DNA from: Phycisphaerales bacterium
GTDB taxonomy: Bacteria; Planctomycetota; Phycisphaerae; Phycisphaerales; UBA1924
Length of the DNA stretch: 64,000 bases
NCBI GenBank assembly: GCA_023382935.1
Contig: JAHDXL010000001.1
Coordinates: 593,003 to 657,002 of the forward strand
Reading direction: 5' to 3'
Shown here piece after piece: positions 57,301 to 64,000 of the stretch (the stretch's first letter is position 1; every line of letters begins with the position of its first letter). Below the pieces are notes generated by a model. The model ran no database searches. It saw only the letters and a program-made list of their open reading frames with translations, and was not told where the DNA came from. The translations under genes were made by a program, and so were the position numbers.

Positions 57301-58251
57301 ATGATCGAACTCAGGAAACTGTGCAAACGGTTCGGAACCATCGTCGCCGTCGATGACCTTTCGCTGGGTGTGGCGCCCGGCGAGGTTCTGGGCTTTCTCG
57401 GGCCGAATGGCGCGGGCAAGAGCACGACCATGAAGATGGTCACAGGCTTCCTGCGTCCCACGTCCGGCTCGGCGAGCGTGTGCGGGCACGACGTGCAGCA
57501 GGAGCCGATGGCCGCGAAGAGACGCATCGGCTACCTTCCCGAGGGGGCGCCGGCCTACCCGGACATGACGCCGGAGTCGTACCTGCGCTTCATCGCGCAG
57601 GTGCGCGGGTTGGATGGAGCGGCCCGCAAGCGACGGATCGCCGAGGTTGCCTCGCTGGTGCATCTCGAGGGCGTGATGCGGCAGCCGATCGAGACGCTGT
57701 CAAAGGGCTACAAGCGCCGCGTCGGGCTGGCGCAGGCCATTCTGCACGACCCGGACGTGCTGATCCTCGACGAGCCGACCGACGGGCTGGATCCGAACCA
57801 GAAGCACGAGGTGCGCGAACTCATCCGCCGGATGGCGGGGGGCGCGCAGCCGGGCAAACTGATCGTGCTTTCGACACACATTCTCGAGGAGGTCGAGGCG
57901 GTGTGCACGCGGGCGGTGGTGATCGCGCGCGGGCGGGTGCTGGCTGACCAGACGCCGGCAGCCCTGCAGGCGCGTTCGCGCTTGCACAACGCGGTGACGC
58001 TGGGCGTGCGGGCGCCGGCCGAAGGGCTGGCGGCGGCGCTGCGGCAGTTGCCCGGCGTGCAGGCGGTGGAGGAACTCGGACAGCGGGACGGCTCGCTGAG
58101 GCTGCGGGTTTTCCCAAGGGGTGGAGCGCTGATCGTGCAGGAAGTGCGCGAAGTGGCGGCCGCTCGCGGGTGCGCGGTGGACGAGATGCGCGTCGAACCC
58201 GGCCGACTCGACGAGGTGTTCCGCACGATCACGATCGGAGGTGCGGCATGA
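57301..58251 (+). CDS. ABC transporter ATPase, GldA-like
   Basis: 316 residues. Walker A GPNGAGKSTT, the D-loop and signature LSKGYKRRVG, Walker B VLILDEPTDGLDPNQ, H-loop STHILEE. The C-terminal extension (about 225-316) is the exporter-type regulatory part. It is the first gene of a four-gene cluster in the order ATPase, ABC-2 permease, auxiliary membrane protein, DUF4340, the same order as the gliding-associated gldA-gldF-gldG set in Bacteroidetes and as a general exporter cluster in many other phyla. Gliding itself is not implied. Stop and permease start overlap by four bases. Confidence 0.93.
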   Translation: MIELRKLCKRFGTIVAVDDLSLGVAPGEVLGFLGPNGAGKSTTMKMVTGFLRPTSGSASVCGHDVQQEPMAAKRRIGYLPEGAPAYPDMTPESYLRFIAQVRGLDGAARKRRIAEVASLVHLEGVMRQPIETLSKGYKRRVGLAQAILHDPDVLILDEPTDGLDPNQKHEVRELIRRMAGGAQPGKLIVLSTHILEEVEAVCTRAVVIARGRVLADQTPAALQARSRLHNAVTLGVRAPAEGLAAALRQLPGVQAVEELGQRDGSLRLRVFPRGGALIVQEVREVAAARGCAVDEMRVEPGRLDEVFRTITIGGAA

Positions 58252-59003
58252 GGGGCCTGGCGGCCGTGCTGAAGCGCGAACTGGCGGGGTACTTCATCAC
58301 CCCGGTGGCGTACGTGTTCATCGTGGTGTTCTTGGTGCTGGTTGGAGTGTTCACGTTCAACGAGAACTTCGGCAACTTCTTCGGGTCAAACCCCGAGGGC
58401 AGCGGGCAGGCCAACCTGCAGGCGTTTTTCGCTTATCAGCCGTGGCTGTACCTGTTCCTGATCCCGGCGATCTCGATGCGCCTGTGGGCCGAGGAGCACC
58501 GCAGCGGCACCATTGAACTGCTGGCGACGCTGCCGATCGCGACATGGGCGGTGGTGTGCGGGAAGTTCGCGGCCGCGTGGGTGTTCGCGGGCATCGCGCT
58601 GGCACTGACGTTTCCGATTTGGATGACGGTGAACTTCCTCGGCGAGCCGGACAACGGCGTGATCGCGGCGGGATACCTGGGCTCGTTCGTGCTCGCGGGC
58701 GGATTCCTGGCCATCGGGGCGTGCATCTCGGCGGCGACGAAGAGCCAGGTGATCGCCTTCGTGCTCTCGGTGGTGTTGTGCCTAGCGTTTCTGCTGGCGG
58801 GCTTCTCGCCGGTGCTTGGGTTCATCGAATCGTGGGCGCCGCAGGCGATCGTCGAGACGGTGGCCAGTTTCAGTTTCCTGACGCACTTCCAGGCGATTTC
58901 GCAGGGCGTGATCGAGGCTCGCGACGTGGTCTTCTTCGCCAGCCTGATCGGGCTGGCTCTGCTGGTCAACGCCATTGTCCTTGAAGTGCGCCGCAGCGCC
59001 TGA
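58248..59003 (+). CDS. ABC-2 permease, GldF-like
   Basis: 251 residues with six transmembrane helices: around 15-35 (YFITPVAYVFIVVFLVLVGV), 55-75, 100-120, 135-160, 170-190 and 225-245. The EEHRSGTIELLATLPI block after helix 2 is the coupling-helix signature of ABC-2/GldF permeases. GGAGGT precedes ATG 58248, and the ATGA overlap with the ATPase gene ensures balanced translation. Works with the ATPase and the auxiliary protein to move an unknown, probably envelope, substrate. Confidence 0.93.
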   Translation: MRGLAAVLKRELAGYFITPVAYVFIVVFLVLVGVFTFNENFGNFFGSNPEGSGQANLQAFFAYQPWLYLFLIPAISMRLWAEEHRSGTIELLATLPIATWAVVCGKFAAAWVFAGIALALTFPIWMTVNFLGEPDNGVIAAGYLGSFVLAGGFLAIGACISAATKSQVIAFVLSVVLCLAFLLAGFSPVLGFIESWAPQAIVETVASFSFLTHFQAISQGVIEARDVVFFASLIGLALLVNAIVLEVRRSA

Positions 59004-59017
59004 GAAAGGAGTCTTGC

Positions 59018-60928
59018 ATGCACAGGCGACTGTTCTCGCTGCTTGCCCTGACTGCCATCATCGTGGTGTTCTTCGCGGTCAACATGCTGGCGTCGATGGC
59101 GCTGCGCTCGATGAGCGCGGACCTGACCCGGGACAGGCTGTACACGCTGCCGGTTGGCGCACGGAACATCGCGCGGGGCGTGGAAGAGCCGATCCGGGTG
59201 CGGGTCTACTTCTCGAAGACGCTGTTTGCCGACCAGCCGGGCGCCATCGCGCTGCAGCGTCGCGTGGAGGACACGCTCCGCCAGTTCGTGGCCGCGTCGG
59301 GCGGGAAGATCGAACTGGAGGTGATCGACCCCGAGCCATTCAGCGAGGAGGAGGACCAGGCGATCGCCGCCGGTCTGTCGGGGCGTCCGGTCGGCGCGGG
59401 CGGCGAGAAGGTCTACTTCGGGCTGGTGGCGACCAACTCGACGGACGGGCGCGAAGTGATTCCGTGGATGGGGGCAATCGAGCCGCGGCTGCTCAACTAT
59501 GAACTGGCGCGGCTGATCTACGTGCTCAACAACCCGGTCAAGCCGAAGATCGCGGTGATCAGCGGGCTGCCCATCGATGGGGCGGAGATGGACCCCATGA
59601 CCGGGCGTCCGCAGCGACCGTGGCTGATCATGAACGAACTGCGCGGGCAGTACGACGTGCAGGTGCTCAAGCCGGGCGTGTCGAGCATCCCGGAAGATAT
59701 CGGCGTACTGCTGGTGGTGTTCCCCAAGTCGTTCAGCGCCGAGACCTGGTACGCCATCGACCAGTTCATCATGCGCGGCGGGCGGGCGGTCTTCACGCTC
59801 GACTCCCAGTGCCAGTCGTACGTTCCACCGGAAGCCATGGCCAACCAGATGGCGCTCTACACCGCCGACCGCTCGGCCAACCTCGGTCCGATCGGAAAGG
59901 CGTGGAAGATCGACCTGGCGCCGCAGGTGGTGGCGGGCGACCAGCAGAACGCGATCATGGTGGATGCTCCGGGACAGGACGCGCGGCAGGTGTCGTATGT
60001 GGTGTATCTGCTGCTCAAGGGCGACCTGCTCAGCAAGGATGACGCCGTCACCACGGCGCTGCAACTGGTGACCGTGCAGGCCGGCGGGGTGATCGAGCAG
60101 CAGGCCGACAGCCCGCTGGCGATGGACGTGCTCGCGTCAACCGGGCCTGAGTCGATGCGCATCGCGGTGGAGAAGGTCAGTTTCCCGGATCCGATGGCCC
60201 TGATTCGCGACTTCGTGCCCTCAGGCCAGCCTCTTCCCATCGCGGTGCGGGTCAGGGGCGAGGCTCCGTCGGCCTTTGCGTCCGGTCCGCCTTCGGTGAA
60301 TATCCCGGCCGACCAGCACCTGGCCAGTTCGACCGGGCCGATCAACGTCATCATTCTGTCCGACTCGGACATGCTCTATGACCGGGCGTGGGCGCAGGAG
60401 ATGAACCTGGGCGGGATGACGCTGGGCTATCAGAAGTTCGCCGACAACGGCTCGCTGCTGCTCAACGCGGTGGAGAATCTCTCCGGCAACTCGGACCTGA
60501 TGTCGATTCGGGCCAGCGCGTCGTACTTCCGCCCGTTCACGCGCGTGGACGAGATGCGCAAGACGGCCGAGAAGGAGAGCCTTGCCGAAGAGCAGCGCCT
60601 GCAGGACGAGTTGCGGGCGGCCGAGCAACGGATCAACGAGATTCAGCGCACGCGCACGGACGGACAGGCGATGACGCTGACGCTGGAGCAGAAGTCCGAA
60701 CTGGAGCGAGCCCGCAACCAGCAGATCGAGGCGCGCAAGAAACTGAGGCAGGTGCAACTGGACCTGAACCGCGAGATTCACAACCTCGGGACCCTGCTGC
60801 GGGTGATCAACATTGCGCTGGTCCCGGCGGTGGTTGCCCTGTTTGCGATCAGCCTTGGGGTCTATCGCGTGTCGAGGCGCGGCGCCGACCGGCGTCGGGT
60901 GCGTGAGGCGGAGGTCAAGGCGTCATGA
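59018..60928 (+). CDS. ABC auxiliary protein, GldG-like
   Basis: 636 residues: an N-terminal helix (LFSLLALTAIIVVFFAVNML), a periplasmic domain beginning RSMSADLTRDRLYTLPVGAR, as in GldG, with a Rossmann-like second part (PKIAVISGLPIDGAEMDP, IDQFIMRGGRAVFTLDS), a coiled-coil (about 505-590, rich in Glu/Arg/Gln), and a C-terminal helix (VALFAISLGVYRVSRR). The family probably stabilises the permease and reaches into the periplasm. AAAGGAG precedes ATG 59018. It overlaps the DUF4340 start by four bases. Confidence 0.92.
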   Translation: MHRRLFSLLALTAIIVVFFAVNMLASMALRSMSADLTRDRLYTLPVGARNIARGVEEPIRVRVYFSKTLFADQPGAIALQRRVEDTLRQFVAASGGKIELEVIDPEPFSEEEDQAIAAGLSGRPVGAGGEKVYFGLVATNSTDGREVIPWMGAIEPRLLNYELARLIYVLNNPVKPKIAVISGLPIDGAEMDPMTGRPQRPWLIMNELRGQYDVQVLKPGVSSIPEDIGVLLVVFPKSFSAETWYAIDQFIMRGGRAVFTLDSQCQSYVPPEAMANQMALYTADRSANLGPIGKAWKIDLAPQVVAGDQQNAIMVDAPGQDARQVSYVVYLLLKGDLLSKDDAVTTALQLVTVQAGGVIEQQADSPLAMDVLASTGPESMRIAVEKVSFPDPMALIRDFVPSGQPLPIAVRVRGEAPSAFASGPPSVNIPADQHLASSTGPINVIILSDSDMLYDRAWAQEMNLGGMTLGYQKFADNGSLLLNAVENLSGNSDLMSIRASASYFRPFTRVDEMRKTAEKESLAEEQRLQDELRAAEQRINEIQRTRTDGQAMTLTLEQKSELERARNQQIEARKKLRQVQLDLNREIHNLGTLLRVINIALVPAVVALFAISLGVYRVSRRGADRRRVREAEVKAS

Positions 60929-61989
60929 ACACCCGGGGAATCCTGTTGCTGGTTGCGGTGGCCGCTCTGCTGGCCGGGCTGGCGGCGCTGGTGTACGTGT
61001 CATCGCGGTCCGCGCCGACGGTGGCGCCTTCAGAACGGCTTTTCCCGGATCTGCTGGCGCGCATCAACGACGTCGCCTCCGTCGAACTGAGCGGCGCGGG
61101 CGGGCAGGTGCGTCTTGCGCGACAGGACGGCGCATGGGTGCTGCCCGAGAAGGCCGGGGTGCCCGCGGTCGAGGCGCGGGTGCGCCCGATCATCATCGCG
61201 TTGGCCGAACTCCAGACCGGCGAACCCAAGACCCGCAACCCCGACCTGTACGCCCGCATCGGGGTTGAAGATCCGGGCGAGGGCGGCACTTCAACCCTGC
61301 TGACGCTCAGCGACGCCTCCGGGCAGACGCTCGCGTCGCTGATCCTGGGCAAGACCGAGTGGATCAGTTCAAACCAGATGAGGTATGTGCGCAAGAGCGG
61401 AGAGGCCCAGTCGTGGCTGCTCGAGTTCAAGCCCGACACCAGCCTCGACGCGACGGTGTGGGCCGACAAGACGCTGGCGCGGGTGGACGGCTCACGCATC
61501 CGCAGCGTGGTCATCCGGCAGCCGACCGGCGAGGAGATGCGGCTGACGAAGGAAACGCCCGAGCAGGAGCACTTTGCGGTGGCGCCGATGCCCGAGGGCC
61601 GCACGCTGCGTTCCGAGGGTGTGGCCGACCCGCTCGCCCGGGGGCTGCAGCAACTGAACTTCGAGGATGTGCGCTCCGCGGGCGAAAGCCTCGAGGGGCT
61701 GGTGACCACGATCACATTTCAGACGTTCGACGGTCTGACGGTCACAATGCGCGTGGTGGACGAGGATGGGGAGCGGTGGGCGACGCTGACGGCCGAGGGC
61801 GATGAGGCGGAGCGGGCGGAGGAACTGGTCGAACTCCAGAATCGCTTTGCGGGGCGGGAGTTCAAACTCGCGACGTGGGCGTTCAACAACCTGAACAAGC
61901 GTGTGATCGACATGATCGCCAGCACGGCGCCGAAGCCGGACGACCCGCTCGATCAACCGATCGGGCCGGTGCTCGACGTTGACGATTAG
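60925..61989 (+). CDS. DUF4340 protein
   Basis: 354 residues. N-terminal signal-anchor (GILLLVAVAALLAGLAALVY), then a DUF4340 body, rich in beta strands, with LARQDGAWVLPEKAGVPA, SLILGKTEW and LEGLVTTITFQTFDGLTVTM. DUF4340 proteins regularly follow GldG-like genes and are thought to form an extracytoplasmic part of the same exporter. Start ATG 60925 overlaps the GldG-like stop. The cluster ends here; the next operon starts 139 bp on with its own promoter. Confidence 0.92.
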   Translation: MNTRGILLLVAVAALLAGLAALVYVSSRSAPTVAPSERLFPDLLARINDVASVELSGAGGQVRLARQDGAWVLPEKAGVPAVEARVRPIIIALAELQTGEPKTRNPDLYARIGVEDPGEGGTSTLLTLSDASGQTLASLILGKTEWISSNQMRYVRKSGEAQSWLLEFKPDTSLDATVWADKTLARVDGSRIRSVVIRQPTGEEMRLTKETPEQEHFAVAPMPEGRTLRSEGVADPLARGLQQLNFEDVRSAGESLEGLVTTITFQTFDGLTVTMRVVDEDGERWATLTAEGDEAERAEELVELQNRFAGREFKLATWAFNNLNKRVIDMIASTAPKPDDPLDQPIGPVLDVDD

Positions 61990-62128: not shown

Positions 62129-62401
62129 ATGGCCAAGGCCGTCGTCGACCCGGAAGAACTGCGTCGCTTCGCCCAGTCGCTCAAGCGATTCAACGCGAAC
62201 CTGACGCAGCAGATGAATGCGTTGAACGGGCAGATGCAGTCGCTCAGCCAGACCTGGCGTGACCAGGAGCACGCAAAGTTTGTCAGCGAGTTTGAGCACA
62301 CGCTGCGCACGCTGACCCGATTCACGCAGGCGGCCGAGCAGCACATTCCCTTCCTGCTGCGGAAGGCCGATCGGGTCGAGGAATACCTGAGGCAGAGGTA
62401 G
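62129..62401 (+). CDS. WXG100-like small helical protein (Esx type)
   Basis: 90 residues, no signal peptide, entirely helical: helix 1 (VDPEELRRFAQSLKRFNANL), a turn with SLSQTWRDQEHAKF, helix 2 (FVSEFEHTLRTLTRFTQAAE). WXG100 proteins are about 100-residue helical hairpins with a Trp in the turn and form antiparallel dimers that are exported by FtsK/SpoIIIE-type ATPases. Here the turn reads TWRDQ instead of WxG. GGGAGG precedes ATG 62129. The gene lies first in an operon with three others with gaps of four bases or overlaps, one of which is a second WxDQ protein. Assignment is by pattern, not by a search. Confidence 0.75.
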   Translation: MAKAVVDPEELRRFAQSLKRFNANLTQQMNALNGQMQSLSQTWRDQEHAKFVSEFEHTLRTLTRFTQAAEQHIPFLLRKADRVEEYLRQR

Positions 62402-62405
62402 GCGC

Positions 62406-63461
62406 ATGTCGGGCGGTGCGAGAATCACGTCCATCGCGGCCTTGCGGGAGTTTCGCCCTGCGCTGATCAAGTTTGTGGAAGAGGCCCGGGCGGCGCTGAT
62501 CGCGGCCGAGGCCGACGCCTCACGCACCATCGACTGGCTGAGTCGCGATCAGGCCCCGTTCTGGAAGAAGGAGATCCGGCGCCGGCAGGACGCGATCGTG
62601 CAGGCCAAGACCAACCTGTTCAACAAGCAGCGGACGGCCAGCGGAGATCCCCGCTCGGCGGTGGAAGAACGCAAGGCGCTGGAGTTGGCCCAGCGTCGGC
62701 TGGAAGAGGCCGAGACCAGGGCCGCCAATACACAATACTGGATCCGGCAACTCGAAAAGGAGCACATGGCCTACAAGGGCGCGGCCCAGATGCTCAGTTC
62801 TCAACTGGTGGCGCTGGAAGACAAGGCTCTGTACGACCTTGACCGCATGAGCGCGGCCCTGGAAGAGTACGTGGCCATCCAGGCGCCGGCGATGGGAGAG
62901 ATGGGTCCGTCGCCAGAGCCAGCGGGCTTTGCCAAGGCCGCCGGCGAGAGTTTCGCGGATCGCGACCGCTTTCGGGACGCGCGTCCGTCGCCCTATGCCA
63001 TCTATCGGCAGGCAACGCCCGGGCCCGGTCGGCGTCGCCGGGCCGAGGCGCTGGCTTCGCTGGAAACGTTGCCCCGTTTTGACCTGTCGCGCGTGGACCG
63101 GATCCGGCAGTCGGACGTGATTTCAGAACTGGATCCGTCAGAAACGCTGGATACGAGCCTGTGGGTTCGGCTGTCGCCAGGGGTGCTGGAGCAGGAGCGC
63201 ATCTACCTTGAACGCGCCGAGCCGGTGGACGCAGAGGACTCGGGCTGGTACGTCGGACCGGCGGGGAACGACCTCCATCCCGAGCCGGAGCGGCGAGAAC
63301 TGGACCGGGTGCGGCTTTCGGACGTGATCACGCTGCGTCCGCCGCTGGAGTTGGTGCTGCGCCTGGCGCGGGGGATGCTGGTGATCGTGCATGGGGCGGG
63401 GGTTGAGAGCGTCACGCTGCCGAACGACACGCTGGCTTTTCCGCGGGAGCAGGCTCCATGA
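62406..63461 (+). CDS. WXG100-operon protein of unknown function
   Basis: 351 residues. The N-terminal half (1-155) is a long helical/coiled-coil stretch rich in Ala, Glu and Arg (FVEEARAALIAAEADASRTI, ERKALELAQRRLEEAETRAA), similar to Esx-associated LXG-like or PE-PPE-like helical parts. After a Pro-rich linker (residues 165-205) the second half has a beta pattern (SLWVRLSPGVLEQERIYLER) with VRLSDVITLRPPLELVLRLA. I cannot name the family. Start 62406 lies four bases after the previous stop; the stop overlaps the next start. It may be a substrate, chaperone or structural part of the secretion system. Confidence 0.65.
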   Translation: MSGGARITSIAALREFRPALIKFVEEARAALIAAEADASRTIDWLSRDQAPFWKKEIRRRQDAIVQAKTNLFNKQRTASGDPRSAVEERKALELAQRRLEEAETRAANTQYWIRQLEKEHMAYKGAAQMLSSQLVALEDKALYDLDRMSAALEEYVAIQAPAMGEMGPSPEPAGFAKAAGESFADRDRFRDARPSPYAIYRQATPGPGRRRRAEALASLETLPRFDLSRVDRIRQSDVISELDPSETLDTSLWVRLSPGVLEQERIYLERAEPVDAEDSGWYVGPAGNDLHPEPERRELDRVRLSDVITLRPPLELVLRLARGMLVIVHGAGVESVTLPNDTLAFPREQAP

Positions 63462-63673
63462 GTTCGGCGGTTGGACGAGCGATGTTGGCCGACGCACACA
63501 AGCAACTGACCACCGCGTGGCTGCGCGCCCGCGACGTGTGGAACGACCAGGCGGCCCGCGACTTTGAACAACGCTATCTTGAAGCACTGGGGCCGAAGAT
63601 CCGCTCGACGCTCTCGGCCATGGAAAAACTCTCCGACGCCACCGCGACGGCGCGGCGCGCCTGCTCCGAATGA
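63458..63673 (+). CDS. Second WXG100-like small helical protein
   Basis: 71 residues, helical: GRAMLADAHKQLTTAWLRAR, then the turn VWNDQAARDFEQRYLEALGP, then KIRSTLSAMEKLSDATATAR. Its turn motif W-x-D-Q-x-A-x-x-F-x-x-x-(F/Y) matches that of the first gene (TWRDQEHAKFVSEF). It may be the heterodimer partner of the 62129 protein, as EsxB is of EsxA, though it is shorter than the usual 100 residues. Start ATG 63458 overlaps the upstream stop (ATGA) and its stop overlaps the next start. Confidence 0.7.
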   Translation: MSSAVGRAMLADAHKQLTTAWLRARDVWNDQAARDFEQRYLEALGPKIRSTLSAMEKLSDATATARRACSE

Positions 63674-64000
63674 ACGGCATGACCACACCCGAAGAGCCCA
63701 TCACCGTCGAGCACCTGATGCAAGGGCCCTTCGCCCAGCGCCAGCGTGCCCTGATTACCCTGTTTCAACAGACCGTCGCCGAGTTTGCCGGCGAATCAGG
63801 TTCGCTGGACAAGCGCATCAGCGAGCAGACCGAGCAGGCCGAGCGTGAATACCGGCACGAGCGCCACAAGGCGCGGCAGGAAAGCGAATCGCGGCTGAAG
63901 GAACTCCACGAGAAGCGTGAGCGCACACTGGCCCGCCTGAACGAGCGGTTCTCCCAGAGTCTCACCGAGGCTCATCGCGCCTACGAGCAGGAACGCCTCG
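63670..64000 (+). CDS. N-terminal part of a coiled-coil protein, likely the secretion ATPase or motor (3' partial)
   Basis: The frame is open from ATG 63670 to the window end (110 residues visible). The visible part begins MNGMTTPEEPITVEHLMQGP, then a helical stretch (QRALITLFQQTVAEFAGES) and a long charged coiled coil rich in Glu, Arg and Gln (SEQTEQAEREYRHERHKARQ, KELHEKRERTLARLNERFSQ). There is no transmembrane or Walker motif yet. In WXG100 operons the following large gene is often an FtsK/SpoIIIE ATPase with a coiled-coil lead-in, so that is the expectation, but the decisive part lies outside the window. Overlap with the previous stop puts it in the same operon. Confidence 0.6.
   Translation, partial: MNGMTTPEEPITVEHLMQGPFAQRQRALITLFQQTVAEFAGESGSLDKRISEQTEQAEREYRHERHKARQESESRLKELHEKRERTLARLNERFSQSLTEAHRAYEQERL

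What the first reader, a model, noticed from the sequence alone, without database searches (positions are those of the whole stretch)
62129..64000. Candidate type VII-like secretion operon with two WXG100-like proteins in a planctomycete
Four genes with overlaps or four-base gaps begin with a 90-residue helical hairpin protein bearing a Trp in the turn, then a 351-residue helical and beta protein, then a second 71-residue Trp-turn protein, then a long coiled-coil protein cut by the window end. Small Trp-turn helical pairs in a tight operon are the hallmark of Esx/WXG100 type VII systems, which are well studied in Actinobacteria and Firmicutes but poorly in planctomycetes. The 351- and coiled-coil proteins match no component I know.
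Basis: partly seen in the sequence, partly recalled or inferred. Interest (0 to 1): 0.82.

Follow-up and report, generated by a model that had tools for sequence, protein, structure and literature searches.

The report
Minimal type VII-like secretion operon
A planctomycete carries a compact four-gene operon for a small WXG100 protein, two helical partner proteins and a motor related to type VII secretion ATPases, and the same four genes recur in other planctomycetes, which points to a stripped-down protein exporter in bacteria with two membranes.

Summary
The four genes are real; past the window end the fourth is 1306 aa with an EccC/EssC-like FtsK/SpoIIIE motor. The 90-aa protein passes the Pfam WXG100 cut-off. 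The 71-aa protein is a shortened relative with an invariant Trp-x-Asp turn. The 351-aa protein is a long helical hairpin plus an Imm33-like domain.

Fetched loci holding all four have one order (29 of 29; 64 of 64). In 294 planctomycete genomes WXG100, hairpin and motor occur together (37 of 39 hairpin genomes have the motor), even where scattered. No fifth gene is widely shared. EssB and YukD are absent here, with working controls. Most likely it is a minimal type VII-like exporter; secretion is unproven. Zhang et al. 2012 footnoted the WXG plus three-domain ATPase, planctomycetes included, as mobile; here it follows taxonomic class. New: the fixed four-gene set, predicted membrane helices in the motor, and the Imm33 fusion.

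The parts
62129..62401 (+). P1: WXG100 protein, 90 aa, turn motif WRDQE, C-terminus EEYLRQR
   Evidence: PF06013 39.4 bits vs cut-off 27.3; TIGR03930 38.8 bits, under its cut-off 44.85; profile matches H. pylori HP0062 3fx7 (1.8e-13) and EsxB; W43, D45, E47, F51, Y86, L87 invariant in 56 rows
62406..63461 (+). P2: 351 aa; residues 10-158 one long helical hairpin (conserved family), residues ~248-336 Imm33-like domain
   Evidence: PF24719 32.7 bits vs cut-off 27; AF2 model pLDDT 88.1, helices 10-77 and 82-158, then alpha+beta domain; relatives
63458..63673 (+). P3: 71 aa short WXG-like protein, turn motif WND
   Evidence: W28 and D30 invariant in 62 rows; W-x-D in 70 of 70 relatives; P3 HMM hits the Caballeronia WXG100 protein at 2e-10 in a set of 37 plasmid proteins and EsxA chain 2vrz at 0.016
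63670..64000 (+). P4: start of the 1306-aa EccC/EssC-like FtsK/SpoIIIE ATPase; only the N-terminal coiled-coil-like part lies in the window, the rest is G000:C1 up to L006:7593
   Evidence: PF01580 127.4 bits, residues 749-928; Walker A GKTGSGKS at 778 only; two predicted membrane spans 220-238 and 254-272 (hydropathy); fold match to EccC 4nh0 from the L077 homologue

Best explanation
The operon encodes a minimal type VII-like protein export module. P4 sits in the inner membrane through two helices, forms (inferred) a hexamer, and its one intact ATPase domain, the middle one, drives export. P1 (WXG100) and P3 (short WXG-like) are helical-hairpin partners that bind the long hairpin of P2 and bring it to P4 (inferred). 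P2 is the cargo carrier or export adaptor; in this genome it carries an Imm33-like domain as passenger or docking domain. Shown: gene content, order, co-occurrence, families, predicted folds of P2 and of the P4 motor, loss of Walker motifs in the two outer P4 domains. Inferred: membrane insertion, hexamer, P1-P2-P3 complex, export itself, and how anything would cross the outer membrane.
For: WXG100 and EccC/EssC-like motor in one operon. In the same 294 genomes P2 and P4 are shared by 37 of 39 carriers of each (Fisher 4e-42); a PF06013 match (E <= 0.001) occurs in 39 of 39 P2 genomes and in only two others, G107 (which has P4) and G028 (weak); 34 of the 41 are over the Pfam cut-off. Genes are kept even when dispersed: single-contig G024 and G105 have P1, P2 and P4 in three places. 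Across 41 fetched loci no ORF cluster outside the four genes reaches more than 6 loci, apart from clusters that lie mostly inside these genes in other frames. In relatives on plasmids the slot beside the WXG100 gene holds a coiled-coil protein with a WHH nuclease domain followed by a SUKH immunity gene (Helicobacter NHP19-012), or a longer coiled-coil protein plus a small gene (Caballeronia SBC2), which is the layout of polymorphic toxins. One or more predicted membrane spans before the motor in 90 of 91 planctomycete P4 with the Walker A pattern, 72 with two.
Against: No secretion data. Canonical export motif YxxxD/E absent in P1 (0 of 61), nearly so in P3 (1 of 70) and rare in P2 (6 of 67). 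EssB/YukC over cut-off in 0 of 41 (control rang), YukD in 6 of 41 and not here (control rang); EccB 0 of 41 but the control was silent. No outer-membrane partner was found, and none was searched for. In most loci P2 has no passenger domain: 94 of 106 have tails of 0-76 aa, so there it cannot be a toxin carrier. P2 shares little sequence with the plasmid toxin carriers (in a set of 37 proteins: Rhodococcus 2e-6, Deinococcus 0.003, Caballeronia 0.004, Helicobacter 37). P3 was not found beside P2 in L046, L048 and L063 (G105, G087, G216); for G216 it lies beside P4 (L242). The motor's highest single Z is to FtsK (26.9), tied with EccC (26.5).
Confidence: 0.6

Rival explanations
1. A conflict or stress-response module that works inside the cell: the EccC-like ATPase is a coiled-coil sensor or remodeller (Bell et al. 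suggest a different mechanism for CoCoNuT-linked relatives without membrane helices), and the WXG proteins are adaptors, not export partners.
For: The closest described relatives sit in defence and TerY-P islands; the Caballeronia motor has no predicted membrane span; no export motif; P2 often has no passenger; the coiled-coil part of P4 has weak PADLOC matches to ZorA (1.6e-5) and LeoBC (0.0045).
Against: 90 of 91 planctomycete P4 have one or more predicted spans upstream of the motor. Kinase, VWA, McrBC or other defence genes are not widely shared neighbours. The strong PADLOC matches (SspH, mad8, HerA) cover only the generic motor.
Confidence: 0.2
2. Same exporter, but P2 is an assembly part or chaperone (an EspG/EssB-like role) that is not exported, and the real substrates are encoded elsewhere or are P1/P3 alone.
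For: P2 is without passenger in 94 of 106 loci; the 12 long tails look like one kind of domain, not different toxins (10 of the 11 run against Pfam pass Imm33-like).
Against: P2 lies in the slot that the Helicobacter and Caballeronia relatives fill with toxin-like carriers. No genome shows more than one WXG100 match over the cut-off, so no second WXG substrate is seen.
Confidence: 0.15
3. A DNA translocase or segregation module, with P1-P3 as unrelated coiled-coil proteins.
For: The middle domain also matches FtsK (own FtsK 54 bits), and the top Z of the motor model is an FtsK motor, 26.9 over 258 residues.
Against: Middle domain scores higher against EccC D1 (72 bits) than own FtsK (54 bits); best whole-motor Foldseek match is EccC; the genome has a separate FtsK with a 920-aa frame; the partner is a WXG100 protein.
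Confidence: 0.05

Closest known systems
'Mobile versions of T7SS': solo WXG plus YueA-like ATPase with three FtsK/HerA domains, only the middle active (Zhang et al. 2012, PMC3482391, Table 1 footnote 6; passages read)
   Same: [quoted passage not shown] planctomycetes named among the carriers.
   Different: The passages read say nothing of P2, P3 or a fixed four-gene operon, and call them mobile; here the P4 tree splits cleanly by class and base composition is not odd.
CoCoNuT-linked EssC-like operon (Bell et al. 2024, PMC11090510; passages read)
   Same: Three-domain EssC-like ATPase with long N-terminal coiled coil, only the central domain active, two WXG100-fold proteins of which one lacks the motif, and a coiled-coil protein.
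   Different: There the coiled-coil protein carries a nuclease, the ATPase is said to lack membrane helices, and the operon sits between VWA genes of a restriction system; here no such neighbours are shared, membrane spans are predicted, and the window's P2 has an Imm33-like domain instead of a nuclease.
H. pylori HP0062/HP0066 and relatives (PMC3397514, PMC4978471; passages read)
   Same: HP0062 is the best solved match of P1, has WRD at the bend like P1, and is clustered with an FtsK/SpoIIIE gene; a dimeric hairpin structure is known.
   Different: The cluster there includes an HNH-type nuclease; distant phylum; the H. pylori genes themselves were not fetched or compared here.
T7SSa and T7SSb (EccC/EssC systems) and T7SSc-j (Garrett et al. 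2024, PMC11217815; abstract, Discussion and passages read)
   Same: WXG100 protein plus membrane FtsK-type ATPase as the shared core; small Lap-like partners of long helical substrates.
   Different: Those are described with four NTPase domains, nearly always a YukD-like TsxB, and further membrane parts; all from Gram-positives; 'planctomyc' does not occur in the text.

Membership tests
Type VII secretion system (a to j) | WXG100-family protein (TsxA/EsxA) | tested here: met
   PF06013 39.4 bits, cut-off 27.3; NCBIfam TIGR03930 38.8 bits, below its 44.85
Type VII secretion system (a to j) | W-x-G at the hairpin bend | tested here: not met
   W-x-D in 61 of 61 P1 and 70 of 70 P3; D45 of P1 invariant in 56 rows
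Type VII secretion system (a to j) | FtsK/SpoIIIE-type ATPase of the EccC/EssC kind, membrane-anchored | tested here: met
   PF01580 127 bits; best fold match EccC 4nh0 E 8.9e-32; two predicted spans. NCBIfam EccCa 118 bits is far under its cut-off 509, so kin, not a curated EccC; membrane insertion itself not tested
Type VII secretion system (a to j) | Number of NTPase domains in the ATPase (four by Garrett et al.; three in EssC by Bell et al.) | tested here: inconclusive
   Three in the model of the L077 homologue, residues 446-1306; only the middle has Walker A/B. Fewer than Garrett's count, equal to Bell's
Type VII secretion system (a to j) | YukD/TsxB ubiquitin-like protein | tested here: not met
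   Own genome none; 6 of 41 module genomes; control rang. T7SSd also lacks it
T7SSb | EssB/YukC | tested here: not met
   0 of 41 over the cut-off, one weak match below it in G107; B. subtilis control rang
T7SSa | EccB | tested here: inconclusive
   0 of 41, but no control genome rang
T7SSa | EccD, EccE, MycP | not tested
   No search was made
Type VII secretion system (a to j) | C-terminal YxxxD/E export motif on a substrate partner | tested here: not met
   P1 0 of 61, P3 1 of 70, P2 6 of 67
Type VII secretion system (a to j) | WXG100 protein is actually exported | not testable with these tools
   Needs secretion assay
Mobile/minimal WXG-ATPase system (Zhang 2012) | ATPase with three FtsK/HerA domains, only the middle active | tested here: met
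   Three domains in the model, Walker motifs in the middle one alone; activity itself not tested
Mobile/minimal WXG-ATPase system (Zhang 2012) | Solo WXG protein | tested here: met
   27 of 28 genomes with exactly one PF06013 match; one has a second under the cut-off; P3 is a second, shorter WXG-like protein
Mobile/minimal WXG-ATPase system (Zhang 2012) | Mobile | tested here: inconclusive
   P4 tree: Phycisphaerae and Planctomycetia one change each, SH-aLRT 100; GC 0.646-0.679 inside vs 0.638-0.695 around; but 1 of 7 genomes of the own family carries it
LXG polymorphic toxin | LXG domain and C-terminal toxin in the long helical protein | tested here: inconclusive
   P2's only Pfam match up to E 10 is PF24719 Imm33-like, no LXG and no toxin domain; its hairpin fold gave no specific match

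The most novel reading that the evidence does not exclude
This is a separate, self-sufficient class of type VII-like exporter for a two-membrane envelope: four proteins in all, vertically inherited through Planctomycetota, with one active ATPase domain and no YxxxD/E signal, in which a dedicated long hairpin protein (P2) replaces both the accessory membrane parts and the classical substrate tag; some Phycisphaerae have turned P2 into a carrier of an immunity-like domain.
Probability: 0.3. Interest if true: 0.8.

Novelty: new variant of a known kind. Interest (0 to 1): 0.6.

Why it matters
T7SS is usually treated as a Gram-positive system that needs many parts. A four-gene version kept in many lineages of a Gram-negative phylum would give a very small set of parts to test how WXG100 proteins and EccC-type motors move protein, and a lead on how planctomycetes deliver proteins. 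It would also tie together loose ends: the H. pylori WXG-like dimer HP0062, the TerY-P islands and the CoCoNuT-linked EssC-like operons.

Tried and rejected
Viral origin: a scan of viral contigs with the P4-specific profile gave 112 pattern matches and no relative. PHROG matches of P4 (FtsK/SpoIIIE-like, one terminase, unknowns) all lie on the motor; P1 has one weak match, 0.007.

Known defence system: the strong PADLOC matches (SspH, mad8, HerA) cover the generic motor; weak ones to ZorA and LeoBC cover the coiled coil, and P1 has one to PDC-S26 at 0.005. Five plasmid hits further down the list (Rhizorhabdus, Sphingomonas, Agrobacterium, Pseudanabaena, Chlorohelix) proved to be long FtsK/SpoIIIE-domain genes, three of them near phosphosulfate-reductase, cysteine-desulfurase or DUF262-type genes, with no annotated WXG gene in the stretch shown, and were dropped. 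A second plasmid search with the Caballeronia motor found the same few relatives at the top.

Recent insertion by a mobile element: composition is not odd, and the nearest relative L077 has the same flanks on both sides, so I do not favour it. The upstream DUF4340-like gene was looked for in 11 other genomes to find an empty site; only one weak match came back, so no empty site was seen.

P2 fold: Foldseek has no match with E <= 0.001; the Z scores of about 11 are the level common for long helices. The Imm33-like domain was not searched alone. The P2 profile against PDB sequences gave only chance-level matches (best 0.03), mostly MHC.

Which EccC domains the three P4 domains are: by sequence the middle one is nearest EccC D1 (72 bits; D2 55, D3 26 in the Streptomyces protein) and the third nearest D2 (HHalign 50% and 77%), while the first matches nothing. 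By order in the fold they lie on D1-D2-D3, and Bell et al. call the active one D2. Left open.

No sigma-70-type promoter pattern was found in L006:1800-8000.

Literature: no held paper has 'type VII secretion', 'Planctomycetes' and 'WXG100' together; 'planctomycet' plus 'WXG100' gave 3 papers, of which one was opened for passages; 'type VII secretion' plus 'planctomycet' gave 9, of which two were opened for passages. Listings were cut at 20 of 35 and 12 of 74. Anantharaman et al. 2012 (PMC4104200) is not held and is known here only through papers that cite it. PMC3935865 and PMC3843698 were read in passages.
Full report
What is there. Four genes lie head to tail at 62129-64000: P1 (90 aa), P2 (351 aa, 4 bases after P1), P3 (71 aa, 4-base overlap) and P4 (4-base overlap), which runs off the window. 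The window is G000:C1:593003-657002 of a 3.72-Mb genome. Fetching on shows P4 to be 1306 aa, followed by a convergent phosphofructokinase-like gene (name by eye).

Families. P1 passes Pfam WXG100 (39.4 bits, cut-off 27.3). P2 has an Imm33-like domain at residues 248-336 (32.7 bits, cut-off 27). P3 has only a sub-threshold WXG100_2 match (E 0.016). P4 has FtsK_SpoIIIE (127 bits). NCBIfam puts P4 nearest EccCa, EccCb and EssC (5e-34 to 9e-28), all far below their cut-offs, and P1 nearest TIGR03930 WXG100, below its cut-off. Against solved structures P4 matches EccC of T. curvata first (species). A profile of 56 P1 proteins matches H. pylori HP0062 (1.8e-13) and then EsxB/EsxA proteins. A P3 profile reaches EsxA only at E 0.016, but an HMM of P3 hits the WXG100 protein of the Caballeronia plasmid at 2e-10 in a set of 37 proteins, so P3 is best read as a shortened WXG relative. 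Both small families have Trp-x-Asp at the bend: 61 of 61 P1 and 70 of 70 P3.

P4 anatomy. Predicted membrane spans lie at 220-238 and 254-272 (hydropathy only), with coiled-coil-like sequence before and after (by eye). Of 92 full-length P4 ORFs examined, 91 have the Walker A pattern; 72 of these have two predicted spans before the motor, 16 one, 2 three and 1 none. Only the middle of three P-loop domains keeps Walker A and B. The AF2 model of the homologous motor in L077 (861 residues, pLDDT 84.6; 93% identical to the window's motor) matches EccC over its whole length (4nh0, Foldseek E 8.9e-32; Z 25.3 over 726 residues, rmsd 15.2) and EccC ATPases 2-3 (Z 26.5, rmsd 7.2). The large rmsd means domains match singly, not as one rigid body. 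The top Z, 26.9, is an FtsK motor on the middle domain, tied with these. By sequence the middle domain is closest to EccC D1, which I recall to be the catalytic one, and the third closest to D2; by order in the fold they map to D1-D2-D3. If D3 is the missing one, the absence of the YxxxD/E tag would fit, since I recall that D3 binds that tag in T. curvata EccC; this is inference.

P2. The AF2 model (pLDDT 88.1) is one long hairpin, helices 10-77 and 82-158, then a confident alpha+beta domain. No specific fold match. Of 106 P2 proteins examined, 94 end within 76 residues after the hairpin, and 12 carry tails of 169-216 residues; the shorter tails of 45 or more that were printed are mostly low-complexity. 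Eleven of these 12 were run against Pfam: 10 pass Imm33-like (P0002, nine of ten; L132 has no match; L078 was not run). On the P4 tree the long tail needs at least 5 changes among 49 rows, so the domain has come and gone.

Spread and linkage. In 294 planctomycete genomes P2 hits came from 41; I dropped G037 and G044, which match only the Imm33 part, leaving 39. P4 was found in 39 and PF06013 in 41 (34 over its cut-off). P2 and P4 share 37; P2-only G271 and G279, P4-only G107 and G219; WXG100 without P2 in G107 and G028, the latter weak and below the cut-off; P4 without WXG100 in G219, a 3.6-kb contig. Of 28 genomes looked at closely all have a WXG100 match, 27 exactly one. So in this sample WXG100 goes with this module. 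In some genomes the genes are dispersed: single-contig G024 and G105 have P1, P2 and P4 in three places, and G152 has P4 apart. One of the 12, L037 (G251), has the order P2-P3-P1 with P4 elsewhere. P4 is broken into pieces in L040 and L074. Among the 80 named loci, which are the best 80 of 539 relatives in a capped scan, 64 hold all four and 64 agree in order and strand; 16 lack one or more, some at contig ends, others (such as L103, L107, L112, L113) with room upstream. The unnamed and named sets may overlap. An all-against-all comparison of ORFs found the four families in 39, 35, 34 and 30 of 41 loci; three more large clusters (29, 25 and 25 loci) consist mostly of ORFs that lie inside these genes in other frames (53 of 63, 95 of 95, 66 of 66), and the largest cluster outside them reaches 6 loci.

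Accessory T7SS parts in 41 module genomes: EssB/YukC 0 over cut-off with the control ringing, YukD 6 and not here, control ringing, EccB 0 but the control was silent.

Inheritance. The motor tree (57 rows, quick method) separates named Phycisphaerae (23) and Planctomycetia (15) with one change each and SH-aLRT 100; 19 rows carry no class label, and the plasmid outgroups have long branches. GC in the operon equals its surroundings. Against this, only 1 of 7 genomes of the own family has it, so losses or transfers occur.

Relatives elsewhere. The best plasmid relatives of P4 are in Rhodococcus, Caballeronia, Deinococcus and Helicobacter. Beside four of the five are P1-family proteins (Caballeronia 2e-27, Helicobacter 1e-17, Rhodococcus AH-ZY2 6e-13, Deinococcus 7e-11); the fifth, R. 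pseudokoreensis, has only a weak one (0.013) (set of 37 proteins). In the Helicobacter plasmid the next gene is a coiled-coil protein with a WHH nuclease domain (44.6 bits, cut-off 25.1), then a SUKH gene (29.1, cut-off 25.4), a 77-aa gene and the ATPase. In Caballeronia it is a 436-aa coiled-coil protein with no Pfam match, which by eye ends in a nuclease-like region, then small genes, the ATPase and a VWA, phosphatase and kinase set. None of these ATPases shows two predicted spans; single weak segments are predicted in three (Helicobacter, both Rhodococcus), and in Deinococcus and R. pseudokoreensis a separate small gene ends in one. In planctomycete G107 the gene between P1 and the ATPase looks like a double span by eye.

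How it probably works. P4 as membrane motor; P1 and P3 as hairpin partners of the P2 hairpin; P2 as the cargo carrier or adaptor. The toxin-immunity pair in the P2 slot of the Helicobacter plasmid is the best hint that this slot is for cargo. In most planctomycete loci seen the carrier has no passenger, so a structural or signalling role outside the cytoplasm, or an adaptor role inside, remains possible.

What is known. Zhang et al. 2012 noted in a table footnote solo WXG proteins with a three-domain ATPase, only the middle active, in several Gram-negative lineages including planctomycetes, as mobile T7SS. Bell et al. 2024 described the CoCoNuT-linked form with two WXG-fold proteins and a coiled-coil nuclease and no membrane helices. 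HP0062 has WRD at its bend and an FtsK neighbour, and WxG plus FtsK, with HP0062 and HP0066 as examples of paralogues, were called a minimal T7SS set. Garrett et al. 2024 do not mention planctomycetes. I found no account of the planctomycete four-gene operon in the searches made; most subscription papers are not held and some listings were cut, so it may exist in print.

Verdict.

Noticed in passing
window 58170-61989; L077, L078, L083, L108: An ABC-transporter, GldG-like and DUF4340-like gene cluster lies directly upstream of P1 on the same strand in the window and, at 24-94% identity by gene, in L077, L083 and L108; L078 holds its last part, and L079 a DUF4340 piece 6.7 kb upstream. It may belong to the transcription unit in some Phycisphaerae (names by eye).
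   Followed up: partly
L072, L075 (G056:C1, G044:C31), G037:C299: A domain similar to the P2 Imm33-like tail occurs in other proteins of planctomycetes, away from the operon.
   Followed up: no
L229:5787-13569 (G107): A divergent module in a 9.5-Mb planctomycete: a sigma-54-type regulator (by eye), P1, a 119-aa protein that looks like a double membrane span, a 1006-aa motor frame, then a 983-aa coiled-coil-like protein; no P2 found.
   Followed up: partly
L157:6666-10634: The Rhodococcus sp. AH-ZY2 plasmid motor begins with a stretch that looks like a TerD domain, and TerD family genes follow the module (domain by eye).
   Followed up: no
L006:13105-14082: Three small tandem proteins with a hydrophobic start and a similar C-terminal tail (EGSMSPEQGERIL-like), apparently duplicates.
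   Followed up: no
L077, L097: Loci labelled Cyanobacteria and Candidatus Nealsonbacteria group inside planctomycetes on the P4 tree, and L077 shares both flanks with the window; likely mislabelled or mixed bins.
   Followed up: partly
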